A DNA stretch of 64,000 bases from Streptomyces globisporus. Its GTDB lineage: Bacteria; Actinomycetota; Actinomycetes; Streptomycetales; Streptomycetaceae. The notes under the pieces were generated by a model. The model searched no databases. It was given only the letters and a program-made list of their open reading frames with translations, and was not told where the DNA came from. Position numbers and translations under genes: made by a program. How positions within the stretch are numbered: position 1 is the stretch's first letter; every line of letters starts with the position of its first letter. This document shows positions 36,571 through 50,887 of the stretch, in pieces. Location: the NCBI GenBank assembly GCA_014649555.1, contig BMTG01000001.1, positions 372,001 through 436,000 of the forward strand, written 5' to 3'.

Positions 36571-36608
36571 AATGGTTTAGACCAGTACCGGGAGCTTGGC
36601 CTAGACCT
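36571..36608 (-). promoter_or_regulatory. tandem DasR operators upstream of dasA
   Basis: Site 1 core TGGTTTAGACCA (36573-36584) and site 2 core TGGCCTAGACCT (36597-36608) are centred 24 bases apart, 85-120 bases before the dasA start. A TGGTCT half-site at 36563 precedes them. The same 279-base region must also carry the dasR promoter. Confidence 0.75.
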
Positions 36609-36767
36609 TTAGGGGTGTCAAGGGTGTATAAGAAGTGCACTCGCGTCCGTTATAGGACCGACACCTAAGGGAGGGCGACGACCCGTGACCGGACCGTGCC
36701 ACCATGTGAGCCGCGACAGTCGGAGGAGCCGGTGACGGCAGTAACGCAAGCGTCGGGAAGGCGGGCC

Positions 36768-37532
36768 ATGAGTGCCGACGGGGGCAGTACGGGGAGTGAG
36801 ACCGGTACCGGTGCGCGCACGGCGCGCGTGCCGAAGTACTACCGGCTCAAGCGGCATCTCCTCGATATGACGGACACCCTGCCGCCGGGGACCCCGGTGC
36901 CGCCCGAGCGCACCCTGGCCGCCGAGTTCGACACCTCGCGCACCACCGTGCGCCAGGCGCTCCAGGAACTGGTCGTCGAGGGACGGCTGGAGCGGATCCA
37001 GGGCAAGGGCACCTTCGTCGCCAAGCCGAAGGTCTCCCAGGCCCTTCAGCTCACCTCGTACACCGAGGACATGCGCGCCCAGGGGCTGGAGCCGACGTCC
37101 CAACTGCTGGACATCGGCTATGTCACGGCGGACGACACGCTCGCCGGTCTGCTGGACATCTCGACGGGCGGCCGGGTGCTGCGCATCGAGCGGCTGCGGC
37201 TCGCCAGCGGCGAGCCGATGGCGATCGAGACCACGCATCTTTCGGCCAAACGCTTCCCGGCGCTGCGCCGTTCGCTGGTGAAGTACACGTCGCTCTACAC
37301 CGCGCTCGCCGAGGTGTACGACGTCCGTCTCGCCGAGGCGGAGGAGACCATCGAGACCTCGCTCGCCACGCCCCGGGAAGCGGGGCTGCTGGGCACGGAC
37401 GTGGGCCTGCCGATGCTGATGCTGTCCCGTCATTCGGTGGACGGCCAGGGCGAACCGGTCGAGTGGGTGCGCTCGGTGTACCGGGGCGACCGCTACAAAT
37501 TCGTGGCGCGCCTCAAGCGCCCGACGGACTGA
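36768..37532 (+). CDS. dasR: GntR/HutC regulator DasR
   Basis: 254 aa from the ATG at 36768, the length of S. coelicolor DasR; an upstream GTG at 36732 with GGAGG is also possible. The GntR winged helix (about 20-80: [21 protein letters not shown]) is followed by a UTRA effector domain. DasR represses aminosugar uptake and links GlcNAc to development and antibiotic production. GlcN-6-P and GlcNAc-6-P release it. It is divergent from its target dasA. Confidence 0.95.
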
Positions 37533-37622: not shown

Positions 37623-38633
37623 TCAGCGCAGTTCGGGGTCCATCTCGATCACGCTGTACGGGTACGGGAGCGCCTGGTCGCTCGCCGCGGTGAGCAGGGC
37701 CGCGTCGGCCGGGTCCAGGTCCAGGTCCGCGGCGCCCAGGTTGGTCTCCAGCTGCTCCAGGGTGCGCGCGCCCACGATGGGCGCGGTGACGCCGGGCCGG
37801 CCGAGCAGCCAGGCGAGGGCCAGCACCGGCACCGCCAGGCCCGTGCGTCCCGCGACCTCGTGCAGGGCGTCCAGCACCCGCCAGGTGCGCTCGTCGCCCT
37901 CGTACGCGCTCCAGGACTCGCCCCAGCCGAGCCGCTCGGCGGTCTCCACGCGGGTGCCCGTGGGCGGCCGTTCCGCACCGCGCCGGATCGCTCCGCTCAG
38001 CCAGCCGCCGCGCAGCGGGCTCCACGGGATGACGCCGAGGCCCTCGTTGCGGCTGACCTCCAGCAGTTCCCACTCCGCGGAGCGGTCCAGCAGGTTGTAG
38101 AGCGGCTGGAGGGCGGTGAAGGGCTCCCAGCCGTTCGCACGGCTGAGGTCGACGGCCTTCTGGAGCTGCCAGCCGGAGAAGTTGCTGGCCCCGATGTAGC
38201 GCACCTTGCCGGAGGTGACCAGGGCGTCCAGCGTCGCGAGGGTCTCCTCCAGCGGCGTGCCGGGGTCCCAGGCGTGCACCTGGTAGAGGTCGATGTGGTC
38301 GGTACCCAGCCGGCGCAGGCTCGACTCGACCCCGGCCATCAGGTGGTTGCGGCCCAGGCCGCGGTCGTTCTGGCCTTCCCCGGTGCCGTACCGGACCTTG
38401 GTGGCGATCACCACGTCGTCGCGGCGCTGTCTCTTCAGCCAGCGGCCGAGGATCTCCTCGGAGGCTCCGGCGGAGTAGATGTCGGCGGTGTCCACGAAGG
38501 TGCCGCCCGCGTCGGTGAAGCGGTCCAGCAGAGCGTGGCTGGTGGTCTCGTCGGCCTCCCGGCCGAACGTCATGGCGCCCAGGCAGAGTTCACTGACCCG
38601 CAGGCCGGTCTTGCCGAGGTAGCGGTAACGCAT
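37623..38633 (-). CDS. aldo/keto reductase
   Basis: 336 aa. The AKR tetrad is visible: F-V-D-T-A-D-I-Y (Asp, Tyr), V-I-A-T-K-V-R-Y (Lys), and Q-V-H-A-W-D (His). It uses NADPH to reduce aldehydes, ketones or keto-sugars. It is the last gene of the long minus-strand glycan operon: GAAGGAA precedes the ATG, and its start lies 44 bases inside the upstream EEP gene. It may simply be co-transcribed. Confidence 0.85.
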
Positions 38634-39732
38634 GGTGGGTTCCTTCGTCGTGGTGGTGGACACCGAGGCCGGCCGTGGGCCGTTCGTCCGGTTCGGCGAG
38701 CGACACGGACACCTCCTGGACGCAGTGGTCGGACAGTCCGCGCGGATCGCGGAAGCGGTAGCTGTGGACGCGGGCGCCCGGTGTGCTGAGCACCCAGTCC
38801 AGCCGCCACCAGCGCAGGCCCGGGCGAGCCTGCCAGGAGACGGGGCAGATCTTCCCGGCCAGGGCGACGGCATCGGCGCCCAGGCGGGCGATGCGGCGGG
38901 CGTCCCCGATCGCGGCGGTGGTGTTGAAGTCCCCGGCGATCAGGGCCGGATGGGGGCAGTCGGCGACGTCCGCGAGGAGTCCCCGGTACTCCTGCCCCCG
39001 GTCGGCGGCCCGGGAGCGGACCGCGCGGTAGAAGTCTGCGCGCAACGGACTGATCAGCCGCAGCTGTACCGGGATGTGGACATTGAACGTGGCCAGAATC
39101 CGACCGTCGCCGGGCATCTCCAGATCCACCCGCAAGGTCCGGCGGGCGGCCGTCTCGACGGTCGCGGCGACCGGAAGGCGGGACAGGGTGATCAGGCCGC
39201 GGGCGATGACGGCCTCGTGATCGGGGAATGCCGCGCGCAGCCGCCGCTCGTCGTCGATCAGCCGGTAGGTGCCGTTGAACCGGTCGTGGTGGTACTCCTG
39301 GAGGAGGTAGACGTCGGCGTCGAGCTCGCGCAGGAAGGCGTAGAACGGCTCGGGGTCGGTGCTCTGGCACCAGTGCTGGGTGTTCCAGGAGACGATGCGC
39401 ACGGCCCCGTCCGGCGGTGGGCGGCGCACTCCCCGTACCAGTGCGCCGGGCACCAGACCGGACTGCCGGGCCCCCAGCAGCAGAGCCGCGGCGGCCACCG
39501 CTCCGGCCGCGAGGTCTCCCGTCACCCCGGCGAGCACCAGGAGCAGGGCGGGCACCGCGACGAAGAGGGGCGGCGGCAGCAACGAGGGCAGCAGCCAGAA
39601 CCACCAGCGGCCGTTGAGGGCGAGGTGGGCGGCGAGAAATCCGGCCCAGGCCAGCGCGGCCCACAGCGGCGGGCCCGGTTCCCCCGCAGCCGCGTTCGCC
39701 AGGAACCCGCCGAGGGCGACGGCCGTCATCAC
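38590..39732 (-). CDS. membrane-anchored endonuclease/exonuclease/phosphatase-family hydrolase (EEP 1)
   Basis: 380 aa. Three or so N-terminal hydrophobic helices (1-95) are followed by an EEP domain: V-S-W-N-T, L-L-Q-E-Y, I-A-G-D-F-N-T, L-D-W-V-L-S and S-D-H-C near the end. The catalytic part probably faces outward, pointing to a lipid- or glycan-phosphodiesterase rather than a nuclease. GTG 39732 and ATG 39729 both overlap the GT4 stop. The last 20 residues run past the usual EEP end and overlap the next gene. Confidence 0.8.
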
Positions 39733-40895
39733 GCGGGGGCTCCCTGAACGCCCCGCCGTGCTCCGGCCTCCCGGAACAGGGCGTCGTAGGCGTCCAGGCA
39801 GTGGTCCGTCCCGTACCGGGCGCGGGCGTCGCGGCCTCCCTCGGCGCGGCGCTCCGGCGAGTAGGCCGCCACCTCGCGCAGGGCCGCGGCCAGGGCGCGC
39901 GCGTCGCCGGGCGGGAAGAGACGGCCGAAACCCGTCTCCGTCACCGGGACGCGCATCCCCGGAGCATCGCTCGCGACCGAGGGGACGCCGAGCATCATCG
40001 CCTCCGCCTGCGAGATACCGAAGGACTCCTCGGCGACGGACGGGAGGGCGAAGGCGTCCAGCGAGGCGTAGAACCCTGCCACCTGGTCATCGTGGAGGAA
40101 GCCGGTGAAGCGGATGCGGGGGTCGTCCCCGGCCCTGGTGCGCAGCGCCCCGACGACACTGCCGCCTGCGACTTTGGAGTAGTCCCCCGCGATGAGCAGC
40201 CGGGCCTCGGGGTCCGGGATGGTCCGGAAGGCGTCCACCAGGTGGTGGAGCCCCTTCTCCGGGGCGATTCGGCCGAGGAAACCGATGTGCGGGCCCGCCG
40301 TCTCGCGGAAGGCGGCGGGCGCGGGCTCGCGCTCCCGGCAGGGCGGGGCGATGGAGAGCAGACGGCGCTCGCGCATCAGGGGCCAGTGGCGTGAATGCTC
40401 CGCGTGGTCCACGTTGTTGACGACGACGGCGGCCGAGCGGCGCAGCGCCCCGGCCACCGAGGCGTCGACCACCTTGACCTGGAGCGGGGCGAGCGCGCCG
40501 CCGGCCAGCCAGACGTCGTCGTGGTGGGTGGCGACGACCGGGGTGTCTCCGGCGAGCCGGGCGACCATCCCGGCCTCCAGCATCGGCAGATGGAGGTTGA
40601 CGACCCGGGAGGCGCGGGCGATCCGTCCGGCGAGCGGGGCGAACCCGGGGCTGACCACGCCGCGTCCGACGCGAGCGACGACCGGGGCGCGGAACACCTC
40701 CACGCCGTTCACGGTCTCCCGCGCGGGGTGTCCGGGTTCGTGGCGGCAGGCGACGACGGCGACCCGGCGGCCCCGTGCGGCCAGCCCTTCGGCGACCGTG
40801 CGCGCCACTTCGGTGAGCCCGCTGGTGTACGGGAGGTAGTAGGTGAGCACGATCGTCGCGTCGAAGCGGGGCGAGCGCGCGGAGCGCCGGGTCAT
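39729..40895 (-). CDS. GT4-family glycosyltransferase
   Basis: 388 aa. N-terminal acceptor domain starts I-V-L-T-Y-Y-L-P-Y-T-S-G-L-T. The GT-B C-terminal donor domain has F-L-G-R-I-A-P-E-K-G-L and the E-S-F-G-I-S-Q-A-E-A-M donor-binding E-x7-E motif. It uses an activated sugar nucleotide, retaining mechanism (family). It sits between two EEP phosphodiesterase genes with four-base overlaps on both sides. Confidence 0.88.
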   Translation of the reverse strand: MTRRSARSPRFDATIVLTYYLPYTSGLTEVARTVAEGLAARGRRVAVVACRHEPGHPARETVNGVEVFRAPVVARVGRGVVSPGFAPLAGRIARASRVVNLHLPMLEAGMVARLAGDTPVVATHHDDVWLAGGALAPLQVKVVDASVAGALRRSAAVVVNNVDHAEHSRHWPLMRERRLLSIAPPCREREPAPAAFRETAGPHIGFLGRIAPEKGLHHLVDAFRTIPDPEARLLIAGDYSKVAGGSVVGALRTRAGDDPRIRFTGFLHDDQVAGFYASLDAFALPSVAEESFGISQAEAMMLGVPSVASDAPGMRVPVTETGFGRLFPPGDARALAAALREVAAYSPERRAEGGRDARARYGTDHCLDAYDALFREAGARRGVQGAPA

Positions 40896-42064
40896 GACCG
40901 GTCCTTCTCGGTGGCCGGGGCGGTGGTGGCCCCGGAGGCGGGCAGGGAGAGGTCCAGCTCGATCAGCCGGTGGGTGGAGAGCGCGGCGGGCGGGTCCTGG
41001 ACGGACTGCCGGTGCAGGTCGACCCGGGGCGACACGAACGCCCAGTCGAGCCGCCAGAGAGCCGGGCCGCTCACCGGGAACGTCGCCGGGTACACCGAGT
41101 CCCCGGCGTGGGCGGCGTCCCGCAGCCCGTCGAACCAGCGCAGGTCCCCGGTGCCCGGCAGCACGTTGAGGTCCCCGGCGAGGACCACCGGGTTCTCGTT
41201 GGCGTCGAGGTCGTCGCGCAGGGCCCGGAAGTGGCGGTCGCGGCGGTCGGAGAGCTGCCGTACGGAGCGGTGGTAGGCGGCGGTCAGGGGGTTGCGGTCG
41301 ACGTTCAGCAGATCGGGCAGGTGCGTGTTGTAGAGGGACAGGGTCTCGCCGTCCACGTCGATGTCGGTGCGCAGGACGCGGATGTTCCAGTAGTCGGCCC
41401 AGGAGGTGTCGGGCGGGGCGAGGCCGTCGGGCCGCAGCGCCCGGACCGAGGTGACCGGGAAGCGGGACAGGGTGAGGAACTCCCCCTCGGTGGCGATGTG
41501 GAAGCCCGGGAACTCCCGTCGGATCCGGGCCAGATCATCGATCGGGGCGGGTTCGTCGCCCCGGGCGTTCTGGTACTCCTGCAGGAGGTAGACGTCGGCG
41601 GAGTGGGACTTCAGATAGGCGTAGAAGGCGTCGGTGTCGCTGTCCTGGTCCCAGAAGAAGGTGTTCCAGTTGACCACCTTCAGGGCACCCGGGGGTACGG
41701 CCGGGTGTCCGCGCAGCAGCGCCCCGGGGTGCAGTCCGGTCTGCCAGGAGCCCAGCAGGAGCGAGACCAGGACGACGCCCACGGCCGCCCGCCGCCGGTG
41801 GCGGATCAGCGCGGCCGGGATCAACAGGACGAGCGGGAAGAGGAGATGGAGGAGGGGCGGGGCGAGACCGAACCCGTTCCACACCCACCACCGGCCGCTG
41901 AGGAGCGCGCGGGCGGCGACGAACAGGGCCCACAGCACGGCGACGGCGAGCAGCAGCCGGCCGGGCCACCGGCGAACTCGCTCTTCCCGTTGGGCCGGTG
42001 TGCCCGCGTCGGCCGCGTCCGGCTCCGTGGGGGCGGCACTGTCCGCCGCCAGGGTCCCCGTCAC
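40892..42064 (-). CDS. membrane-anchored EEP-family hydrolase (EEP 2)
   Basis: 390 aa from the GTG overlapping the GT2 stop. A Pro/Ala/Asp-rich N-terminus is followed by about three membrane helices and then an EEP domain: V-N-W-N-T-F-F-W, L-L-Q-E-Y-Q-N, L-A-G-D-L-N-V-L, L-D-W-A-F-V-S, and S-T-H-R-L. The SDH motif is S-T-H here; His is kept. It is a paralogue of the other EEP gene two places downstream. Confidence 0.82.
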   Translation of the reverse strand: MTGTLAADSAAPTEPDAADAGTPAQREERVRRWPGRLLLAVAVLWALFVAARALLSGRWWVWNGFGLAPPLLHLLFPLVLLIPAALIRHRRRAAVGVVLVSLLLGSWQTGLHPGALLRGHPAVPPGALKVVNWNTFFWDQDSDTDAFYAYLKSHSADVYLLQEYQNARGDEPAPIDDLARIRREFPGFHIATEGEFLTLSRFPVTSVRALRPDGLAPPDTSWADYWNIRVLRTDIDVDGETLSLYNTHLPDLLNVDRNPLTAAYHRSVRQLSDRRDRHFRALRDDLDANENPVVLAGDLNVLPGTGDLRWFDGLRDAAHAGDSVYPATFPVSGPALWRLDWAFVSPRVDLHRQSVQDPPAALSTHRLIELDLSLPASGATTAPATEKDRS

Positions 42065-43092
42065 GGGGTGGCCCGTACCGCGGCGAGGTGCGCGCCCGGC
42101 TCGTACAGGCGCCGGAAGCGGCGCGAGACCAGCCACTGGAGGGCGCCGACGCCCGCGCCCGCCGCGATGACGGCGTTGACGACGGTGTGCGCGAAGGCGA
42201 AGTAGGCGGCGAACAGGGGGCCCCGGCGGCGCAGCACGAAACGGTACAGGGCCGTGTCCGCGAGCAGGGTGAGGGCGAGCAGGGCGGCCGGGACGAGCAG
42301 CCAGGGCGCGGCGATCAGGCCGAGCGGCAGGGTGATCAGGGCGAGCAGGGCCGCGATGCTGGCCCCGGCCCGGGGTCCGGTGGCGATACCGCCGGGGAGG
42401 TCGCCCCGGCGCACGTACAGCGGGATGTGCAGCCGGGTGCGGTGGAAGACCTTGCGCAGGACGACCCGCCAGGTGTCGTCGTGGTCGTGCCGGCCCCGGA
42501 CGGCGGTGGAGCTGTGGACCTCGTAGCTCCGGCAGATGCGGGCGGCGTAGTCGCCGTCCTCGGTGTGGCGCAGCCGGGGGTTGAAGGGGCCGATCTCGGC
42601 GAAGACCCGGGCGGGCATGGCGCAGATCGCGGTGTGCAGGGTGCCGATGCGGCCCTCGGTCTCGGCCAGCCAGTAGAACTGGTGAAGGCAGCGGTACTCC
42701 TCGATCAGGCTGTCGCGGATGAGGGGTTCGGCGTCGTAGGTGCCGCAGACCGCGCCGATGCGGGGGTCGGAGTCGAGCAGGGCGACGGCATTGGCGATCG
42801 CGTCCGGTTCCATCGCCACGTCGGAGTCGACGAACACGACGATCTCGCCCCGGGCGTGGGCCGCCCCCGTGTTGCGGGTGGTGGCGACCCCGCTGTTGAC
42901 GCCGGTGCTGATCACCCGGACCCCGCAGGCCTCGGCGACGGCGACGGAGTCGTCGGTGGAGCAGTCGTCGACGAGCAGCACCTCCAGGGGCTCGTAGGTC
43001 TGGGTGAGGGCGGCGCGCAGGCAGAGTTCCAGGGCGCGGCCGTAGTTGTAGTTGGGGATGACGACGGAGACGAGGGGGTGCTTCCGGTTCAT
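42061..43092 (-). CDS. GT2-family glycosyltransferase with C-terminal membrane helices
   Basis: 343 aa. GT-A domain: V-S-V-V-I-P-N-Y-N-Y, L-V-D-D-C-S-T-D-D-S, and the DxD-type V-D-S-D-V; H-T-E-D-G-D acceptor region. Two to three C-terminal helices hold it in the membrane. It resembles the second GT2 of this operon in layout. It probably uses UDP-sugar with a lipid-linked acceptor. Confidence 0.88.
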   Translation of the reverse strand: MNRKHPLVSVVIPNYNYGRALELCLRAALTQTYEPLEVLLVDDCSTDDSVAVAEACGVRVISTGVNSGVATTRNTGAAHARGEIVVFVDSDVAMEPDAIANAVALLDSDPRIGAVCGTYDAEPLIRDSLIEEYRCLHQFYWLAETEGRIGTLHTAICAMPARVFAEIGPFNPRLRHTEDGDYAARICRSYEVHSSTAVRGRHDHDDTWRVVLRKVFHRTRLHIPLYVRRGDLPGGIATGPRAGASIAALLALITLPLGLIAAPWLLVPAALLALTLLADTALYRFVLRRRGPLFAAYFAFAHTVVNAVIAAGAGVGALQWLVSRRFRRLYEPGAHLAAVRATP

Positions 43093-43144
43093 GGGACGCC
43101 TTCGGGCGGTCGGAGGGGCGGACGGGCGGGCCGGGCGGAGACGG

Positions 43145-44200
43145 TCAGCCGGAGGGGTGCGTGAGGAGGGCGAGGGCGACGAGGACCGCCCACAGGCCGG
43201 CGTTGATGAGGGTCACGCGGTCCCGGAAGAGGACGTGGACGGGGTTGCCGCCGCCCTCCTCGACCAGGAGGAGCTGGAGGTAGCGGGCGAGGCCGAAGAC
43301 GGCGCAGGGGGCGGAGAGCAGGATGACGAAGGAGGCCCCGCCGGCGAGGGCCGCGTCGTCGCGGAGGTAGAGGACGTAACTGACGGCGGTCAGCGCGGCG
43401 ACCAGGACGACCAGGTGGTCGAGGAAGGCGAGCGTGTAGCCGCGCAGGGCGGGGCGGTGAGCGCGGCCCGCCGCCGTCATCTCGTGCCGCCGTTTGCCCA
43501 GGGACAGCATCAGGCAGAGCGAGAAGACGCAGAGCGCCAGCCATTCGGAGAGCCGGCCTCCGATGAGCAGCGCACCCTGGAGGAGCCGGAGGACGAAGCC
43601 GGTCGCCACGATGAAGGCGTCCACCAGCGGTACGTGTTTGAGCCCCTGGGAGTACGCGAGGCTCAGCGCCAGGTAGAGGGCGGTGGGCCACCACTGCCAG
43701 GCGGGACCGGCCACCGCCCAGCCGGTCAGCGACAGGGCGAGGAGCCCGCTCAGGACGGTGGCGGCGGCCGGGGAAACGCGGCCGGAGGCGATCGGACGGT
43801 GGCGTTTGACCGGGTGCAGGCGGTCCCGCTCCCGGTCGGCGAGGTCGTTGACGACGTAGACGACGGCGGAGGCGAGGGTGAAGCCAAGGATCGCCCAGCC
43901 GGTGCGCAGGAGGTCGGCGGCCCCCCAGGGATGGGTGTCGAGGAGTGCGAGCGGGACGACGGCCAGGTTCTTCACCCACTGGCCGGGGCGCACCAGCGCG
44001 AGCAGGTCACGGGGACGGCTGCGGCGGCGTTCCTCCGGTACGGCGGTGGGGGCGGCGGCCGTCGACTGCTGGTCGTGGGCGGGCTGGGACAGAGCGGTGA
44101 GGTCGGCGGGCTCGGTCAGAGCCGTGAGGTCGACGGGTTCGGGTTCGGGCGGGACTGCCACCACGCGCAGGGGCGCGGGGGACGACCGGGTGATGTCCAC
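43145..44200 (-). CDS. UbiA-family prenyltransferase, decaprenyl-phosphate phosphoribosyltransferase-like
   Basis: 351 aa from a GTG. A hydrophilic N-terminus of about 60 residues precedes eight or nine helices. V-V-N-D-L-A-D-R-E-R-D...H-P-V-K-R-H-R-P-I-A-S-G (about 115-137) fits the NDxxDxxxD plus HPxKxxRPIxxG signature of the DPPR synthase (Rv3806c) type, which transfers phosphoribose to decaprenyl phosphate in arabinan biosynthesis. In Streptomyces, which lacks arabinogalactan, the role is unclear. Confidence 0.87.
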   Translation of the reverse strand: MDITRSSPAPLRVVAVPPEPEPVDLTALTEPADLTALSQPAHDQQSTAAAPTAVPEERRRSRPRDLLALVRPGQWVKNLAVVPLALLDTHPWGAADLLRTGWAILGFTLASAVVYVVNDLADRERDRLHPVKRHRPIASGRVSPAAATVLSGLLALSLTGWAVAGPAWQWWPTALYLALSLAYSQGLKHVPLVDAFIVATGFVLRLLQGALLIGGRLSEWLALCVFSLCLMLSLGKRRHEMTAAGRAHRPALRGYTLAFLDHLVVLVAALTAVSYVLYLRDDAALAGGASFVILLSAPCAVFGLARYLQLLLVEEGGGNPVHVLFRDRVTLINAGLWAVLVALALLTHPSG

Positions 44201-44217
44201 GGCAGGGCTCCAGGGGA

Positions 44218-45264
44218 TCAGAAGAAGACCTTGGCCAGACCGAGCGCCCCTTGGCGCCACGGGTCCCGGCTGGTCCGGCCGGCTCCGGGAGCGGGGGCGC
44301 CGCCCCGCCGCTGGGTCCGCCACCACGCGTAGGTGGAGAGGATGGCGTCCCGGTTGGAGAGCGCGGGACGGAAGCCGAGCCGTTCGGTGGCCCGGGTGAT
44401 GTCCACGTAACTGTCGTCGAGGAGCTTGAACAGCAGCCTCCCGTAGACCGGGGAGAGCTTGGTGCGCTCCAGTGCGCGCAGGACCGCGAGTGCCGGTGCT
44501 GCCGGCAGCGGGACCACGCGCTTGCCGTGCCCGGCCGCGTCCAGTACGGCCTGGAAGTCCTCGCGCAGGGTGCCGAATTCGGCGGCGCCCAGGTTGTAGA
44601 CGTCGTTCGCGACCTCGGGCGGGGCGTGCAGGGCGAGCACCACGGCGTCGACCAGGTCGGCCATGCCGAACATCTGGATGCGGACGTCGCCCCGGCCCAG
44701 AACGGGGAAGTTGCGCCGTTCCTCGGCCCATTCGAAGAGCATCGAGAAGAGGCCCATCCGGCCGGGTCCGAGGAAGGTCTTGGGGCGCAGGACCGGCAGG
44801 CACATCCCGCGCCCCCGGAACTCCTCGCAGACCTCCTCGGCCTCGGCCTTGGCCCTGCTGTACGGGTCGACGGGCTCGCGGGGGTGACCCTCCGGGGTGG
44901 GGACCCGCTTCGGCAGTCCGTAGACGGCGGTGGAGGAGATGTGCACGACCCGTTCGACACGGGCCCGGTGCGCGGCGGTCAGGACGGCCCGGGTGCCGTC
45001 GACGGTGATCGAGCGGATCTGGTCGACGGGATAGGAGGGCAGGGCGGCGGCACAGTGCACCAGCGCGTGGGCTCCGTCGAAGGCGCGGGCGAGCGCGGCC
45101 CCGTCCCGGATGTCGGCGACGATGTGCCGGGCGCCGGCGGGCGGGTGGGGGTCCTCGCGCAGGTCGATCCCGACGACGTCGTGGCCGTCGGCGGCGAGCC
45201 GGGCGACAAGGTGGGAACCGAGCATGCCGGCGGCGCCGGTCACGGCGATGGTCAGGCCGCCCAT
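44218..45264 (-). CDS. NAD-dependent sugar epimerase/dehydratase
   Basis: 348 aa. Rossmann motif V-T-G-A-A-G-M-L-G; S-S-T-A-V-Y-G and Y-S-R-A-K provide the catalytic Ser/Tyr/Lys. This is the extended SDR class acting on nucleotide- or lipid-linked sugars. It starts 13 bases inside the upstream aminotransferase gene and directly precedes UbiA; a DPR-type ribose-to-arabinose epimerisation step is one possibility. Confidence 0.86.
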   Translation of the reverse strand: MGGLTIAVTGAAGMLGSHLVARLAADGHDVVGIDLREDPHPPAGARHIVADIRDGAALARAFDGAHALVHCAAALPSYPVDQIRSITVDGTRAVLTAAHRARVERVVHISSTAVYGLPKRVPTPEGHPREPVDPYSRAKAEAEEVCEEFRGRGMCLPVLRPKTFLGPGRMGLFSMLFEWAEERRNFPVLGRGDVRIQMFGMADLVDAVVLALHAPPEVANDVYNLGAAEFGTLREDFQAVLDAAGHGKRVVPLPAAPALAVLRALERTKLSPVYGRLLFKLLDDSYVDITRATERLGFRPALSNRDAILSTYAWWRTQRRGGAPAPGAGRTSRDPWRQGALGLAKVFF

Positions 45265-46700
45265 CGGGACACCGCCTTGTCCTTGAAGAAGGCGGTGAGA
45301 AGCCGGTTCATGCCCTTGGCCAGGGTCCGGTCGAAGGCGTCGAGGAAGATCTCCACCTCGTCGGGGCCCGCGACCAGACAGGGGGCGGCCACCAGGGGGC
45401 TGCGGCCGTTGAGCGTGTAGTACATGTACACGTCGTGGTCGTGGTACATCGCGTTGACGACCGCGCAGGTGATGACCTTGGTACGCAGCAGCGGGTCGCG
45501 GGCGAGGCCGCCGGGGGCGATCTTCGCGGCGAGGTCCAGGAGGCGGGGGCCGCCGTCGAGGAAGATCCCGTACAGCGCACCGGCGCCCCGGACGTCGGCG
45601 ATGAGGTCGGGGTATTGCTTGCGCAGCCTCTCCAGGCCCGGCTTCAGGACGCGTTCGATGGCGCGGGCGCGGGCCGGGTAGTCGTCCTCGACCGCGATGT
45701 TGACGGCTTCCAGCGCGGTGGCGGTCTCCTCGCCGAAGCCGTAGTAGGTGGTGCTGGTGGACTGGAGCATGGCGTCGCCGAGGCTGTCGTAGGCCGTACG
45801 GAAGACGGGTTCGCGGGCGACGAAGGCGGAGATGGAGGACTTGCCGCCGCCGAAGGACTTCGAGGTGGTCACGACGTCCGGGACCAGGTCCGGGTAGCGC
45901 ATGAAGTGGAAGAGGCTGCCCGTCTTGCCCCACCCGGTGTAGATCTCGTCGAAGATCAGCACGATCTTCTCGGCGGTGCACAACTCCCGCAGCCCGCGCA
46001 GGAACTCCTCGGAGCACTCGGTCATGGTGGAGGCCGAGAAGGACTCGATGAGGATCGCGTAGACGTCGCAGCGCCCCTTGGCGTCGCGGGCCCCGGCGAC
46101 CGCCTGCCGCACGGAGTCGAGGTCGCCGTACCGGAAGGCGGAGACACCGGGGATGCCGGGGAAGGCGAAGGCGTTCTGGGCGCTGCCGGTGAGGCTGCCG
46201 GAGCCGAGCAGCTTGCCGTGGAAGCTGATGTCGGCGTGCAGGATCTGCCGGCGGCGGCCGCCGTGGTACTTGTACGCGAGTTTCACCGCGCCCTCGACGG
46301 CCTCCGCCCCGGAGTTGGGGAAGAAGGAGAGGTTGAGGTCACCGGGGAGGAGCTGAGCGAGGTTGTGGCCGAGGGCGGCGATGTAGGGCGAGAAGTAGGT
46401 CTTGTGGACCTCCATCCGGCGCTGTTCCTGGAAGCGGCGGCGGGCGGCGAGGATCCGCGGGTGGTTGTGGCCGTGGTTGAGGACGCCGACGCCGCCGGTG
46501 AAGTCGAGGATCCGGCGGCCGTCCCGGGTGTGGATCCAGGACCCTTCGGCGTGGTCGACGAGTTCGCGGCCGAAGCCGAAGGAGGTCATCAGGGAGACCT
46601 GGCTCTTGTTGACGTGGGACCGGTACAGCTCGTGCACCTGGCTCGTCGACAGTTGTTCGCAGTCGTCCACGGTGAGCAGGGAGGTTGCGTCGGAGGTCAT
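45252..46700 (-). CDS. class III PLP-dependent aminotransferase
   Basis: 482 aa. Motifs: F-F-P-N-S-G-A-E-A-V-E phosphate-binding region, D251 in I-F-D-E-I-Y-T-G-W-G (binds PLP ring N), Lys281 in T-T-S-K-S-F-G-G-G (Schiff base). Relatives include diaminobutyrate-2-oxoglutarate and other omega-aminotransferases. It overlaps the flippase gene by four bases and may produce an amino sugar or an amino-acid moiety for the glycan. Confidence 0.87.
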   Translation of the reverse strand: MTSDATSLLTVDDCEQLSTSQVHELYRSHVNKSQVSLMTSFGFGRELVDHAEGSWIHTRDGRRILDFTGGVGVLNHGHNHPRILAARRRFQEQRRMEVHKTYFSPYIAALGHNLAQLLPGDLNLSFFPNSGAEAVEGAVKLAYKYHGGRRRQILHADISFHGKLLGSGSLTGSAQNAFAFPGIPGVSAFRYGDLDSVRQAVAGARDAKGRCDVYAILIESFSASTMTECSEEFLRGLRELCTAEKIVLIFDEIYTGWGKTGSLFHFMRYPDLVPDVVTTSKSFGGGKSSISAFVAREPVFRTAYDSLGDAMLQSTSTTYYGFGEETATALEAVNIAVEDDYPARARAIERVLKPGLERLRKQYPDLIADVRGAGALYGIFLDGGPRLLDLAAKIAPGGLARDPLLRTKVITCAVVNAMYHDHDVYMYYTLNGRSPLVAAPCLVAGPDEVEIFLDAFDRTLAKGMNRLLTAFFKDKAVSRWAA

Positions 46701-47815
46701 GCGGCTCCTTCCCGGAGCGCGGGTCGGGGGGCGGGCAGGGGTCCGGCGGCGCGGGCCCAGGCGAGGGCGGCGCCGGTGGCGGCGACCTCGCTGAGCACGC
46801 AGACGAGCCGGCTGGCGATGACGGCGGCGGTGGCCGCGGAGAGCGGCATGACCGCTCCCAGGGGGGCGAGGAGGACGAGCTCGCGTGCTCCCCAGCCGTC
46901 GGGCAGGACGAAGGCGAGGCTTCCGGCGACGGTGGCCAGGGCGAAACCGCCGACGCAGACGGGCAGGGAGAGCAGCGGCGGGGCGCCGAGCAGGACGGCG
47001 ATGACCCACAGGTGGAGTCCGGAGACCACCCAGGAGGCGCACGCCCAGCCGATGGAGAGCCGCAGGGCGCGGGGCGAGCTGTCGGCGGCCCCGGCGGGGC
47101 GGCGGGCCAGCCGCATCGTCCACGCGACGAGCCGGCCCACCCAGCCGGGCCGGGCCACGGCCGCCGCCGCGACCAGCACGAGCGGGGCGAAGACCCAGGC
47201 TCCCGTGCCGAACACGGCCGGGGCGACGAGGAGTCCGGCGGCGGCCCCGGTGGTCATCCCGATGACGAGGCCGAGTCCGAAGGCGGCGATCATCCGCTCG
47301 GGGGCGATGCCGGCGGCCTTGCCGAGCTGGACGTGGGCGAGGACGCCCCAGATGCGGCCGGGGACGAATTTGCTGATGACGCCGATGAAGAAGATGCGGG
47401 CGGTGTCGCTGGTACGGGCGGGGGAACCGCCGTCCACGACGAGGACCCGCCAGGAGAGCATGGACAGGACGAGTCCGGCGGCGTTGGCGACCAGGGCCGC
47501 GCTCAGCAGGAGCACTCCCCCGGGCCGGCCGGCGGCGTCGGCCAGCTCTGTTCCGGCCGCGCGGAGCGAGCCGCCGACGGCGAAGCAGGTGGCCGCGACG
47601 AGGACGAGCGCGGCGGCGGGACGCAGCACCCGGGCCCACCGGGAGGGAGGGGACTCGGCCTTCGGCGCCGCCGCGTCCACGGGTTCGGCGTCCGGCAGCG
47701 GGCCCCGGGACCGTATGGCCTCGGCTTCCGGCGACGCGGCCCCGGACCGTACGGCCCTGCGAAGCGCGCCCCTCGACCGTACGGCTTCCGGCTCCTGGTC
47801 CGGCCCGGCGCTCAC
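46697..47815 (-). CDS. LPG-synthase-TM / flippase-like integral membrane protein
   Basis: 372 aa from the GTG overlapping the GT2 stop. An Arg/Ala/Ser-rich N-terminus (1-50) contains internal repeats R-S-R-G. Eight or so helices follow, with I-S-K-F-V-P-G-R-I-W-G and L-P-D-G-W-G-A-R-E characteristic of the lysylphosphatidylglycerol-synthase transmembrane family (UPF0104), which move lipids or act as a flippase. The soluble aminoacyl-transfer domain is absent, so translocation of a polyprenyl-linked intermediate is the better guess. Confidence 0.83.
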   Translation of the reverse strand: MSAGPDQEPEAVRSRGALRRAVRSGAASPEAEAIRSRGPLPDAEPVDAAAPKAESPPSRWARVLRPAAALVLVAATCFAVGGSLRAAGTELADAAGRPGGVLLLSAALVANAAGLVLSMLSWRVLVVDGGSPARTSDTARIFFIGVISKFVPGRIWGVLAHVQLGKAAGIAPERMIAAFGLGLVIGMTTGAAAGLLVAPAVFGTGAWVFAPLVLVAAAAVARPGWVGRLVAWTMRLARRPAGAADSSPRALRLSIGWACASWVVSGLHLWVIAVLLGAPPLLSLPVCVGGFALATVAGSLAFVLPDGWGARELVLLAPLGAVMPLSAATAAVIASRLVCVLSEVAATGAALAWARAAGPLPAPRPALREGAA

Positions 47816-48849
47816 GGTGCCGCCGCCGGGGCCGGATCGCCGCTGCGGGCGCGGCGGCCCCGCGCCGAGGGGCCGAAGCGCGGGTCCACCAGCCAGCGCA
47901 CGCCGCCGGCCACCGCGCCGAGCACGAGGGCCAGGTGCACCGCGAAGTGCAGCGCGGTGAAGCGGAGCAGGAAGAGCCACCCCGTGCGGCGCGCCACGAA
48001 GCGGGACAGGCCCACGTCCGCCAGGGCGAAGGCCGCGGCGCAGGCGAGCGGCACCGCGAGGAGCCAGGGGGTGAGCAGGGCGAGCGGGAGCGTGAGCGGG
48101 ACCAGGCCGGCGGCGAGCACGCCGCCCGTACGGTTGGCCCGCAGTCCGCCGCCGCGCCGGCGTTCCACGGCGGCGACGGGGACGAGGAGCTGGGAGCGGC
48201 GGTACTGCTCGGCGAGCATCGGCAGCAGCCGGTCCACGTCGTCGTGGCGGCCGGTCACCCGTTCGCTGAGGCGGATGCGGTGGGTGGCGGCGAGGCGGTC
48301 GCTGTACTCGACGTCCTCGGAGTCGCGGAGGTTCTCGTCGAAGGGTCCGGTCGCCTCGAAGACGGAGCGCTCGATCGCGGCCAGGGCGAAGAAGGCGGTG
48401 CCGACGACTCCGGCGCTGCGGCGCCGCCAGAAGTGCGCGTGCAGGCAGTGGTAGACCTCCACCGGGCCGTCGTCGAAGAGCGGTTCGGGGTCGAGGACGC
48501 CGTGGACGCAGCCGGTCCCCGGATCGTCCATGAGCAGGTCGACGGCGTTCTCGATCGCGTCGGGGGCCAGGGCGATGTCGGAGTCGAGGAAGAACAGCAC
48601 CTGCCCGGAGGAGGCGGCGACGCCCAGGTTGCGCGCGGCGGAGACCCCGCCGTTCTCCGGGCGGGCCACCAGGACGCACGGGAAGGTGCGGGCGATGTCG
48701 CGGGAGCCGTCGGTGCTGGCGTCGTCCACGACGACCACGTCCAGCGGGCGCAGGGTCTGGGCGTAGACGGACTCCAGGCAGGCCCGCAGGGTCTTCTCGT
48801 AGTTGTGGTTGGGGATGATCACTGACACGGAGGGGCGCTCCCGTGGCAT
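47812..48849 (-). CDS. GT2-family glycosyltransferase with C-terminal membrane helices
   Basis: 345 aa. V-S-V-I-I-P-N-H-N-Y, V-V-D-D-A-S-T-D-G-S and F-L-D-S-D-I are the GT-A nucleotide-sugar motifs; D-S-E-D-V-E-Y is the acceptor Asp region. Hydrophobic helices near the C-terminus resemble the other GT2. It starts 31 bases inside the upstream small gene. Confidence 0.88.
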   Translation of the reverse strand: MPRERPSVSVIIPNHNYEKTLRACLESVYAQTLRPLDVVVVDDASTDGSRDIARTFPCVLVARPENGGVSAARNLGVAASSGQVLFFLDSDIALAPDAIENAVDLLMDDPGTGCVHGVLDPEPLFDDGPVEVYHCLHAHFWRRRSAGVVGTAFFALAAIERSVFEATGPFDENLRDSEDVEYSDRLAATHRIRLSERVTGRHDDVDRLLPMLAEQYRRSQLLVPVAAVERRRGGGLRANRTGGVLAAGLVPLTLPLALLTPWLLAVPLACAAAFALADVGLSRFVARRTGWLFLLRFTALHFAVHLALVLGAVAGGVRWLVDPRFGPSARGRRARSGDPAPAAAP

Positions 48850-49199
48850 GGCGGGTCCGGTCCTTTCGGTTCGGGGGATCGGTGCGGGCCCGGGCGGGCG
48901 AAGACGCCGCCGAGTGCGGCGGGCCGCCAGTCGAGGGAGGAGGGCCGGGCGGCGCACAGGGCGGCCAGGAGGTGCTCCAGCGCGGCCAGTTCGGCCTGGA
49001 GGGGGTCGGGGCTCTCCATGTACAGCGCGGCGCGGACCGTGCCGTCCGGGCCCTCGACGACGTACACATGGACCGGTCCGGGCGTGTGGGGCCCGGCCCG
49101 GACGTGGCGGGAGCGCAGCCAGCGGGCCAGGTCGCGGGCTGTCCACCGGTCGGTGCGCGGGGGTCCGGTGCGCACGAGGAGCGCGGTCACCAGGAACAC
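48819..49199 (-). CDS. small hypothetical protein at the operon head
   Basis: 126 aa from a GTG. A hydrophobic N-terminus (M-F-L-V-T-A-L-L) is followed by R-W-T-A-R-D-L-A-R-W-L, a V-H-V-Y-V-V-E-G-P-D-G-T-V-R-A beta-hairpin-like part and helices. No signal sequence of normal length, no known domain. The overlap with the GT2 gene shows it is transcribed with the operon. Coding status is supported by GC-at-third-position pattern and coupling rather than by homology. Confidence 0.6.
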   Translation of the reverse strand: MFLVTALLVRTGPPRTDRWTARDLARWLRSRHVRAGPHTPGPVHVYVVEGPDGTVRAALYMESPDPLQAELAALEHLLAALCAARPSSLDWRPAALGGVFARPGPHRSPEPKGPDPPCHGSAPPCQ

Positions 49200-49221
49200 G
49201 GAGGCGTCCCGTTCCCCCGGG

Positions 49222-49332
49222 TCACCCCCAGGAGAAGCCGTCCCGGGCCGAGGCGGCGCACAGCGCCGCCCCGAGGGCGGGAGAGCCGGCGGCCGACGCG
49301 TTGCGGAGGGCAGGGAGAAGGAACGCCCGCAT
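49222..49332 (-). CDS. 36-aa peptide, first ORF of the glycan operon
   Basis: Sequence starts M-R-A-F-L-L-P-A-L-R and ends D-G-F-S-W-G; the middle is Ala/Ser/Gly-rich with one Cys (residue 25). The ATG has an excellent GAGGAG site seven bases upstream, and the stop is 22 bases before the next gene, the geometry of a real operon-leading gene. It could be a secreted or signalling peptide, a RiPP-like precursor or a leader peptide. No modification enzyme typical of lanthipeptides is in the operon. Confidence 0.55.
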   Translation of the reverse strand: MRAFLLPALRNASAAGSPALGAALCAASARDGFSWG

Positions 49333-49624
49333 GGGAAGACTCCTCGGAATGTGGCGGTGTGTGAATGACTTGTGACGGCCAGATCCTGTCGCCATCGCCG
49401 CGCCGGGGGCCACGGTTACCGGGTGGCCGAAAGCTGCGGGGCAGCAGGGTGCCAGCCGCGGGAACGGCCTCACGAGGCCCACTGCCTGGGACGATGCGGT
49501 GGCGGCAGCAAACTGCCAGACACCTTGTGGCCATCCGTCGCCGCGCTCGGGGCACCGTGCGGCCACCGCCGGAGCTCGGCTTCTCCGGCCATGAGCGCCC
49601 CGCTGGGCCCATCCATCCCGTGGA

Positions 49625-49640
49625 CTTGGTCTATACCTTC
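49625..49640. promoter_or_regulatory. dre-like (DasR) site between the glycan operon and its regulator
   Basis: Core TGGTCTATACCT (49627-49638) differs by one base from the nagB operator core TGGTCTATACCA. It is 293 bases before the operon's first ORF and 95 bases before the divergent regulator start. The rest of the 400-base gap holds no gene. Confidence 0.5.
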
Positions 49641-49732: not shown

Positions 49733-50725
49733 ATGTTAGAGGTACTGGGGCTGGACGCGCGGACGGAGCTGGTCTACCGGCTCGTCCTGGAGGAACCGGA
49801 GCTGCGGCTCGACGAGATCGTGGCACGGCTGGGGCGGAGCGAGGACGATGTGCGCCGGGCCCTGGACCAGTTGGCGGAGCTGTGTCTGCTGGATGACGAC
49901 CCCCACGGCACGGAGCAGGGCCAGCCGGTCTTCCGGGCCCTGGACCCGGCGGCCAGCCTGCCGTTCCTCCTCTCCCGCCGGGAGGCCGAACTGGCACGGC
50001 AGCAGCGGGGGCTCGAAGTCGCCCGGGACGCGATGTCGGTCCTCACCACGGACCGGGGGCGGCGGGCCGGCGGCGGATTCGACGTCGTCAAGCGGCTGGA
50101 GGGGCTCGACGCGGTACGCGAGCGGCTGACCGAACTGGCCGAGCTGGCCAGGGCGGAGTGCCTCTCGCTGCTACCCGGCGGCGCGCAGTCCCCGGACACG
50201 CTGGAGGCGAGCTGGCCTCTCGACCGGCGGGCGCTGGAGCGCGGTGTGCGGCTGCGCAGCATCTACCAGGACAGCTTCCGCAACGACCCGCCGACCCTGC
50301 GCTACGTGAACCGGCTGGGGTCGCTCGGCGCGGAGAGCCGGACGCTGCCGACACTGCCGCTGGTCATGGTGGTGGTCGACGGCGAGGTCGCGCTCGTGCC
50401 GCTGGACCCCGACGACGGGCGGGCGGGCGCCCTGGAGTTGCGCAGCAAGGGGGCGGTCGCGGTGGCCCGGATGCTGTTCGAGCAGCTGTGGGTGAACGCC
50501 ACCCCGCTCTGCTCCGCTCCCGCCCGGGACGGCAACGGGCTGACCCCTCAGGAGGACGAGTTGCTGTCGCTGCTGGCGAAGGGGCACACGGACGCGACCG
50601 CGGCACGCCGCCTGGGAGTGTCGCTGCGCACCGTGCGCCGGATGAACGCCGAGCTGACGGCCCGGATGCAGGTCCGCAGCAGGTTCCAGGCGGGTGCGGA
50701 GGCGGCCCGGCGGGGCTGGGTCTGA
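49733..50725 (+). CDS. TrmB/LuxR-type helix-turn-helix regulator
   Basis: 330 aa from an ATG with GGGGAG six bases upstream. An N-terminal winged-helix (TrmB-like: L-G-L-D-A-R-T-E-L-V-Y-R-L) and a central PLD-like domain precede a C-terminal LuxR-type HTH ([27 protein letters not shown]). This architecture is common in Streptomyces next to specialised-metabolite genes. It is divergent from the twelve-gene operon, so control of that operon is likely. Confidence 0.82.
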   Translation: MLEVLGLDARTELVYRLVLEEPELRLDEIVARLGRSEDDVRRALDQLAELCLLDDDPHGTEQGQPVFRALDPAASLPFLLSRREAELARQQRGLEVARDAMSVLTTDRGRRAGGGFDVVKRLEGLDAVRERLTELAELARAECLSLLPGGAQSPDTLEASWPLDRRALERGVRLRSIYQDSFRNDPPTLRYVNRLGSLGAESRTLPTLPLVMVVVDGEVALVPLDPDDGRAGALELRSKGAVAVARMLFEQLWVNATPLCSAPARDGNGLTPQEDELLSLLAKGHTDATAARRLGVSLRTVRRMNAELTARMQVRSRFQAGAEAARRGWV

Positions 50726-50887
50726 GCGCCCCGCGCCGAGTGAACCGGGCCGGAGTGCCGCCCGTGTCCTGTTGCGACACATCACCGTTGCCGGACCGCA
50801 ATGCGGACAGGGGGTGACGCTGGTCGGACGCGTCCCATAGATTTCCTGCCCATCGCACCGGTGATCAGCGAGGGGACGGAGCAACAC

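What the first reader, a model, noticed from the sequence alone, without database searches (positions are those of the whole stretch)
37623..49332. Twelve-gene polyprenyl-linked glycan operon of unknown product
All genes from the 36-aa ORF to the aldo/keto reductase run on one strand, mostly with overlaps of four bases. They encode a DPPR-synthase-like UbiA protein, an epimerase, a class III aminotransferase, two GT2 and one GT4 enzymes, a flippase-like protein and two membrane-anchored EEP hydrolases. This fits assembly, export and trimming of a lipid-linked saccharide. Streptomyces has no arabinogalactan, so the DPPR-like enzyme implies a different decaprenyl-phosphate pentose product.
Basis: partly seen in the sequence, partly recalled or inferred. 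Interest (0 to 1): 0.8.

Follow-up and report, generated by a model that had tools for sequence, protein, structure and literature searches.

The report
Peptide-signal module heading a glycan operon
A Streptomyces operon for a membrane-linked sugar product begins with a tiny gene that looks like a secreted signalling peptide, and similar peptide-plus-regulator pairs stand in front of other genes in many Streptomyces, hinting at an undescribed chemical language.

Summary
The one-strand run (37623-49332) is real. In the 10 fetched loci of the window's own type that span it, the divergent regulator C and g02-g12 keep the same order. But it is two things. g03-g12 are a glycoconjugate pathway with a DPPR-synthase-like UbiA. 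The "36-aa ORF" (g01) and a 126-aa orphan (g02) belong with C (49733-50725) to a recurrent module. g01 is found in the window and 24 of 24 loci examined; of 18 distinct sequences 15 end in GFSWG. Three distant clusters have an unrelated, longer leader that also ends in GFSWG. Of 105 loci of C-like regulators, 51 have a divergent small, signal-like peptide with a C-terminal Trp motif, 70 a g02-family gene, 43 both, 27 neither. The peptide filter gave 52 hits in 94.5 strand-kb there and 1 in 180.8 around other LuxR-type genes. Best reading: a peptide signal and its cytoplasmic regulator control an amino-glycan operon beside dasR. Secretion, import, binding and product are inferred. Six literature searches in an open-licence library showed no description of the module.

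The parts
49733..50725 (+). C: regulator, LuxR-type HTH at the C-terminus, weak TrmB-like wHTH at the N-terminus, 330 aa; candidate peptide receptor
   Evidence: GerE 29.1 bits (cut-off 23.5), TrmB 16.7 (cut-off 25.6); start set by an ATG with RBS seen in relatives; AlphaFold2 model of low confidence, pLDDT 63.2
49626..49637 (.). dre-like (DasR) element before C: TTGGTCTATACC
   Evidence: GGTnTAGACCA 87-108 bp before the regulator in 19 of 105 loci, 0 of 105 in control stretches; the 16-bp dre match in the window is under 12 of 16
49503..49518 (-). operator-like inverted repeat 1, TGGCAGTTTGCTGCCG, 170 bp before g01
   Evidence: near-match to TGGC-N8-GCCA, enriched upstream of this regulator family; not remarkable by itself in the window
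49439..49454 (-). operator-like inverted repeat 2, TGGCACCCTGCTGCCC, 106 bp before g01
   Evidence: as above
49222..49332 (-). g01: 36-aa peptide precursor ending GFSWG
   Evidence: in 24 of 24 loci examined, 15 of 18 distinct sequences end GFSWG; same ending behind an unrelated leader in L185, L186, L193
48819..49199 (-). g02: small protein, predicted ferredoxin-like fold, recurrent partner of C-like regulators
   Evidence: HMM family; AlphaFold2 pLDDT 79.9; no PDB match at E 0.001
47812..48849 (-). g03: GT2 glycosyltransferase
   Evidence: PF00535
46697..47815 (-). g04: LPG_synthase_TM (flippase-like) membrane protein
   Evidence: PF03706
45252..46700 (-). g05: class III aminotransferase
   Evidence: PF00202; nearest solved structure putrescine aminotransferase 4uox
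44218..45264 (-). g06: extended SDR, epimerase/dehydrogenase-like
   Evidence: PF01370; NCBIfam HpnA and OleD below cut-off
43145..44164 (-). g07: UbiA protein, DPPR-synthase-like (start uncertain)
   Evidence: PF01040; 8j8j E 1.1e-27
42061..43092 (-). g08: GT2 glycosyltransferase
   Evidence: PF00535
40892..42064 (-). g09: EEP-family hydrolase with N-terminal hydrophobic part (start uncertain)
   Evidence: PF03372; motifs WNT, LLQEY, AGDxN, RLDW
39729..40895 (-). g10: GT4 glycosyltransferase
   Evidence: PF13692/PF00534
38590..39732 (-). g11: EEP-family hydrolase with N-terminal hydrophobic part
   Evidence: PF03372; motifs
37623..38633 (-). g12: aldo/keto reductase
   Evidence: PF00248

Best explanation
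The run is a glycoconjugate pathway (g03-g12) behind a peptide-signal module (peptide g01, small protein g02, regulator C). Inferred mechanism: g01 is exported and its C-terminal end (GFSWG or a little longer) is released as a short linear peptide; as it builds up it re-enters the cell through an oligopeptide importer and binds C, perhaps with g02; C then acts on TGGC-N8-GCCA-like operators before g01 and switches the run g01-g12, with feedback. A dre-like element before C would add control by DasR, the GlcNAc-responsive repressor encoded next to the run. The operon then makes an amino-substituted polyprenyl-phosphate-linked oligosaccharide: UbiA primes a lipid-phosphate sugar, g06 and g05 oxidise and aminate a unit, GT2, GT2 and GT4 extend it, g04 moves it across the membrane and the EEP enzymes cleave phosphodiesters. 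Shown by sequence: the genes, the recurrent three-part module, the conserved GFSWG ending, the enriched operator-like and dre-like elements. Inferred: secretion, processing, import, binding, direction of control, every substrate, and the product.
For: GFSWG ending kept while middle and leader vary. Peptide filter: 39 of 76 first loci against 2, 3 and 1 of 76 in control stretches; 52 hits in 94.5 strand-kb against 1 in 180.8. g02 family beside 70 of 105 regulators, both parts beside 43. Tandem repeats, with synonymous differences between units in 11 of 20 precursors looked at. Ending type follows the regulator tree (8 changes, shuffled mean 27.6, as low in 0 of 200). TGGC-N8-GCCA 33 sites in 63.0 kb upstream against 5 in 187.5 kb, in 28 of 78 loci with module parts and 2 of 27 without. 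dre-like element, dasR next to the run. Aminotransferase 71-77% and SDR 55-71% identical in variant clusters whose UbiA is 42-56%. A passage of PMC4398421 says that genes of the deoxysugar, ebosin-like cluster SCO0381-0401 were up in a dasR mutant; that this cluster holds relatives of these genes is recalled, not tested.
Against: The window's own g01 leader is only weakly hydrophobic (best 11-residue mean 1.79; 0.96 in L040, 0.61 in L041), and four of the 24 loci (L047, L119, L048, L120) lack the Trp. 27 of 105 regulators have neither part nearby (three of these, L121, L122 and L237, have them at the far end of the cluster). No operator in 25 loci of a later set, and in a scan of all 4-base half-sites CGGC-N4-GCCG was commoner (36 of 91 loci against 5 of 91). 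Variant UbiA clusters L187-L192, L049-L052 and L144 showed no convincing Trp peptide. The first peptide filter and the tree labels were drawn up after seeing examples. No experiment shows secretion or binding. No sugar polymerase was recognised among the twelve genes scanned.
Confidence: 0.4

Rival explanations
1. The peptides are secreted products rather than signals: g01 is the precursor of a RiPP-like or otherwise bioactive peptide, g02 a recognition or maturation helper, C only the regulator of the gene set.
For: Small precursor with variable leader and conserved C-terminal core; tandem cores; g02 is small and co-occurs.
Against: No shared modifying enzyme was noticed among the ORFs printed around 76 loci (read by eye, no family scan of them); the neighbours differ between loci; the constant partner is a DNA-binding regulator, and the ending type follows its tree.
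Confidence: 0.25
2. g01 and its likes are leader ORFs in the 5' region that regulate the operon in cis by translation (attenuation or coupling), so that the encoded ending, with its Trp codon, matters only to the ribosome.
For: g01 is short, lies 22 bases before g02, and its last codons are the same DNA in the relatives printed (read there).
Against: Signal-like leaders and repeated motifs in other members; in many loci the g02-family gene comes before the peptide gene, so the peptide ORF is not the leader of the run (for example L151, L153, L162, L170); endings also WD, WT, WQ.
Confidence: 0.15
3. Only the pathway matters: g07 makes a polyprenyl-phosphate pentose, and g01/g02 are unimportant.
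For: Alignment to 8j8j.
Against: Below the curated cut-offs; g01 and g02 conserved with C; amination genes better conserved than UbiA.
Confidence: 0.15

Closest known systems
RRNPP peptide quorum sensing of Firmicutes (Rap/Phr, PlcR, Rgg/SHP)
   Same: Small secreted-looking propeptide gene beside the gene of a cytoplasmic DNA-binding regulator (the RRNPP description is from the abstract and listing of PMC10075063 and recall)
   Different: C has wHTH and LuxR-type HTH matches and no TPR match; a third, ferredoxin-like partner; Trp motifs
Orphan LuxR-type regulators of actinobacteria
   Same: LuxR-type C-terminal HTH; a census (PMC3466318, passages) reports almost no LuxI partner
   Different: Here a linked candidate peptide ligand; 'TrmB' does not occur in that paper's main text
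Decaprenyl-phosphate phosphoribosyltransferase (DPPR synthase, 8j8j)
   Same: Aligned over 278 residues with the active-loop motif
   Different: Below NCBIfam cut-offs; no Emb match in the genome; cluster holds aminotransferase and SDR
SCO0381-0401 deoxysugar / ste (ebosin) type clusters
   Same: Described as exopolysaccharide-type and affected by dasR (passage of PMC4398421)
   Different: Gene-by-gene relation not tested here

Membership tests
RRNPP peptide/receptor systems | Receptor with TPR domain | tested here: not met
   Pfam scan of C to E 1 shows HTH families, no TPR
RRNPP peptide/receptor systems | Small propeptide gene next to the receptor gene | tested here: met
   g01 beside C; 51 of 105 loci
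RRNPP peptide/receptor systems | Peptide exported, processed, re-imported and bound by the receptor | not testable with these tools
   Needs experiment
LuxR-type (GerE) regulators | GerE domain over the curated cut-off | tested here: met
   29.1 bits, cut-off 23.5
TrmB regulators | TrmB domain over the curated cut-off | tested here: not met
   16.7 bits, cut-off 25.6; the name TrmB-like is used here for likeness only
DPPR synthase | Homology and active-loop motif | tested here: met
   8j8j, E 1.1e-27
DPPR synthase | NCBIfam equivalog cut-off | tested here: not met
   189.8 of 234, 169.4 of 207 bits
DPPR synthase | PRPP and polyprenyl phosphate as substrates | not testable with these tools
   Needs assay
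Mycofactocin MftF | NCBIfam cut-off for g03 or g08 | tested here: not met
   86.2 and 89.7 of 280 bits
RiPP precursor | Dedicated modifying enzyme next to the precursor | tested here: inconclusive
   None noticed by eye among ORFs printed around 76 loci; those ORFs were not scanned

The most novel reading that the evidence does not exclude
Streptomyces carry a large undescribed family of peptide pheromone systems: short Trp-containing peptides (GFSWG, SINWD, VIGWD, DLPWT, DMGWQ and others), several made from alpha-factor-like tandem-repeat precursors, each read by its own wHTH-LuxR regulator with a ferredoxin-like partner; the window's copy puts an amino-glycan pathway under joint peptide and GlcNAc/DasR control.
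Probability: 0.45. Interest if true: 0.92.

Novelty: new variant of a known kind. Interest (0 to 1): 0.8.

Why it matters
Signalling by small linear peptides is well known in Firmicutes, while in Streptomyces the butyrolactone type is the well characterised one, and a census found almost no LuxI partners for actinobacterial LuxR proteins (passages of PMC3466318 and PMC4748050). A recurrent peptide/regulator/partner module with readable peptide endings would give testable ligands for many such regulators, a way to switch on silent gene sets with short synthetic peptides, and candidates for the long-sought peptides that Streptomyces take up as developmental signals (the unidentified BldK-imported peptide; recalled, no call). 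The pathway itself would add an uncharacterised amino-glycan or glycolipid.

Tried and rejected
Spurious 36-aa ORF: rejected, since start, RBS, place and ending recur. Scans that kept one start per ORF or looked only at the window's distant paralogues missed it. Regulators without a peptide in the first filter: a wider look on both strands gave nothing convincing; relaxed rules added L112, L145, L148 and L152.

UbiA alternatives: EboC 23.1 of 250 bits; Ubi-297 is placed in another UbiA group than the phosphoribosyltransferases (passages of PMC9235831). HpnA for g06: 80.6 of 367.65 bits. MftF for the GT2 proteins: below cut-off. EEP g09: no PDB sequence match at E 0.1.

Trp peptide in variant UbiA clusters L187, L189-L191, L049-L051: none. 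Perfect TGGCAGN4CTGCCA in the window's whole genome: one place, fewer than the backwards control. g02 fold search: best PDB match E 5.6e-3. Regulator model: low confidence, not searched.

Literature on the module: searches (motif letters as words), 29, 43, 72 and 85; listings and abstract starts seen, and passages of PMC3466318 and PMC4748050. On the pathway: searches; passages of PMC4021200, PMC4398421 and PMC9235831. The library has open-licence papers only, no bioRxiv.

The confidence, probability and interest scores are as in that draft.
Full report
WHAT IS THERE. Twelve minus-strand ORFs lie as described. Families: g03 GT2, g04 LPG_synthase_TM, g05 class III aminotransferase, g06 extended SDR, g07 UbiA, g08 GT2, g09 EEP, g10 GT4, g11 EEP, g12 aldo/keto reductase. 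g01 (36 aa) and g02 (126 aa) reached no family at the thresholds used. Five of 11 junctions are 4-base overlaps. Divergent to the run lies a regulator, C; an ATG with RBS that recurs in relatives puts its start at 49733. It has a LuxR-type HTH over cut-off and a TrmB-like wHTH below cut-off.

CONSERVATION. UbiA relatives occur in 86 of 199 genomes sampled in the genus at E <= 1e-20; 20 of these (the window's own included) have a hit of 42% identity or more, the other listed hits are 37% or less. In 10 loci of the window's type that span the region, C and g02-g12 keep their order. Variant clusters hold the same gene kinds reshuffled. In those with a good aminotransferase match it is 71-77% identical and the SDR 66-71%; the SDR is 55-60% in L049, L051, L144, L188 and L192, where the aminotransferase is absent or only distantly alike; UbiA is 42-56%. 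So amination, not the prenyl step alone, may define the product.

THE UBIA PROTEIN. It aligns with the solved decaprenyl-phosphate phosphoribosyltransferase 8j8j at E 1.1e-27 with the NDxxDxExDRxHPxKRxRPIA loop, but stays below NCBIfam's cut-offs. The genome gave no Emb match. A lipid-phosphate sugar primer is likely; donor, chain length and product are open. Such a protein outside arabinogalactan makers is not rare: 88 plasmid records matched, 31 of them Rhizobium, and 3 of the 15 listed rows bear the phosphoribosyltransferase name.

THE 36-aa ORF IS A PEPTIDE GENE. With a rule that takes the shortest ATG/RBS ORF ending within 70 bases before g02, it is found in the window and in 24 of 24 loci (some of the same genome fetched twice), 18 distinct sequences in all. 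Fifteen end GFSWG; the others end GFSRA (L047, L119), GFFRR (L048) and GFFRG (L120). In L185, L186 and L193 a precursor of 65-68 residues with a long hydrophobic leader, unlike g01, also ends GFSWG directly before a g02-family gene; the regulators of these clusters are 54-56% identical to C. Ending kept, leader replaced: the ending is probably what matters. The window's own leader is only weakly hydrophobic.

A RECURRENT MODULE. C has seven further relatives in its own genome that match over 249 residues or more and relatives at E <= 1e-25 in 115 of 121 genomes sampled in the genus. I examined 105 loci (76; L116/L231 and L117/L233 are the same places). A filter (RBS, ATG or GTG, basic N-terminus, hydrophobic stretch, Trp in the last six residues) finds a divergent peptide in 39 of the first 76 (L149 looks false), against 2, 3 and 1 of 76 in three control stretches of the same loci. 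Over 105 loci it gives 52 hits in 94.5 strand-kb; around 29 other LuxR-type loci of the window's genome 1 in 180.8 strand-kb (L217 left out because it adjoins a regulator of this family). The filter was drawn up after first examples and a few of the 52 hits are g02-family ORFs or doubtful.

PEPTIDE SHAPES. Endings fall into types: GFSWG; SINWD/SISWD/LNWD; VIGWD; DLPWT; xGWQ, DMIWQ and DMSWQ; others. Several precursors repeat the motif: L134 SINWD x4, L137 VIGWD x5, L175 DLPWT x3, L177 TTVWE x4, and L112 of the window's own genome DIAW x5. Of 20 repeat precursors looked at, 11 show synonymous differences between units (L108, L112, L137, L140, L150, L164, L173, L175, L180, L245, and L134 just behind the motif), 8 are identical in DNA, and L163 has one unit with the Trp changed. 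The ending type follows the tree of 49 regulators (8 changes; shuffled mean 27.6, as low in 0 of 200); labels were set by hand after inspection, the mixed WG label is not clustered (110 of 500), and near-copies add to the effect.

g02 FAMILY. An HMM grown from small proteins beside other such regulators picks out 67 of 13,111 ORFs at E < 1e-4, all in loci of these regulators or of UbiA clusters, which were most of what was searched. A model from 43 non-kin members finds the orthologues L120, L118, L046 and L048 at 7e-8 to 5e-7, the window's g02 at 0.008, and other close kin at 0.003-0.25. AlphaFold2 gives a beta-alpha-beta-beta-alpha-beta, ferredoxin-like fold (pLDDT 79.9) without significant PDB match. 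Tally over 105 loci: both parts 43, peptide only 8, g02 only 27, neither 27; without 14 kin 35, 8, 21 and 27 of 91. Three of the 'neither' regulators (L121, L122, L237) have their peptide and g02 at the far end of the cluster.

OPERATORS. Inverted repeats of the TGGCAG/CTGCC kind recur before g01 in the window-type loci printed. TGGC-N8-GCCA, derived from window-type and L185-type loci, occurs 33 times in 63.0 kb upstream of these regulators and 5 times in 187.5 kb of control; spacing 8 stands far above the other spacings tried, with small excesses at 4 (7 against 2 sites) and 13 (9 against 7). Non-kin: 20 of 91 loci against 1 of 91 in regulator ORFs. In the same scan CGGC-N4-GCCG was in 36 of 91 against 5 of 91, so the true operator may differ. 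28 of 78 loci with module parts have TGGC-N8-GCCA, 2 of 27 without. Against: 0 of 25 in a later set; the window's two sites each carry a mismatch and would not stand out alone (46 one-mismatch sites in the window, 50.66 expected).

LINK TO GlcNAc. The gene at 36696-37532 is DasR (E 3.4e-144 to 4zs8); dasR also lies beside the peptide end in L186 and L193. A dre-like GGTnTAGACCA sits 87-108 bp before the regulator in 19 of 105 loci (17 places without the two repeats), 0 of 105 in control stretches, and in 10 of 10 loci of the set L036-L048 named above. All 19 are window-type C (13 of 14 kin; L120 lacks it) or regulators 54-56% identical to it (L121, L122, L234-L237; of these L121, L122 and L237 were seen to belong to UbiA clusters). 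It matches the core of the consensus A(G/C)TGGTCTAGACCA(G/C)T quoted in PMC4398421 (passage); over 16 positions it reaches 12-13 in some loci and less in the window. DasR binding is inference.

RANGE. C-like regulators reach other families of the class (70 of 296 genomes at E <= 1e-30; 21 of 114 genera). Of 25 loci scanned from that search, 11 are of the genus (4 with a Trp peptide: L259, L264, L265, L267) and 14 are not (one doubtful, L279). L251 and L253, from another family of the order, have one.

VERDICT. The pathway half is an uncharacterised amino-glycan or glycolipid cluster. The surprising half is the head of the run: a conserved peptide gene with a partner and a regulator that recurs in Streptomyces. 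It would work like known peptide pheromone systems, but its regulator is not of the RRNPP family.

Noticed in passing
window 36696-37532 (+), 36571-36586: dasR lies at the tail of the run, with a good dre site (14 of 16) between dasR and the next genes, which read like dasA/dasB (recalled); both cluster types adjoin dasR.
   Followed up: partly
L108 (G000:C14:15000-22500) and L112 (G000:C14:170500-178000): Two more C-like regulators of the window's own genome face peptide genes with repeated DLPWT and DIAW motifs.
   Followed up: partly
L139, L140, L148, L151, L152, L162, L177: Behind several modules stand secreted proteins that read like CHAP or NlpC/P60 cell-wall hydrolases (by eye, not scanned).
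   Followed up: no
L053 8540-10769: An Ignavibacteria MAG contig has a UbiA (36%) directly followed by a g06-like SDR (46%), so the pair exists far from actinobacteria.
   Followed up: no
window 50801-53113 (+): A 770-aa membrane protein behind C reads like a CstA carbon-starvation transporter (recalled, not scanned); found beside C in close relatives only.
   Followed up: no
L126, L127, L128, L130: A g02-family gene without a recognised Trp peptide stands before a gene that reads like EPSP synthase in several genomes (by eye).
   Followed up: no
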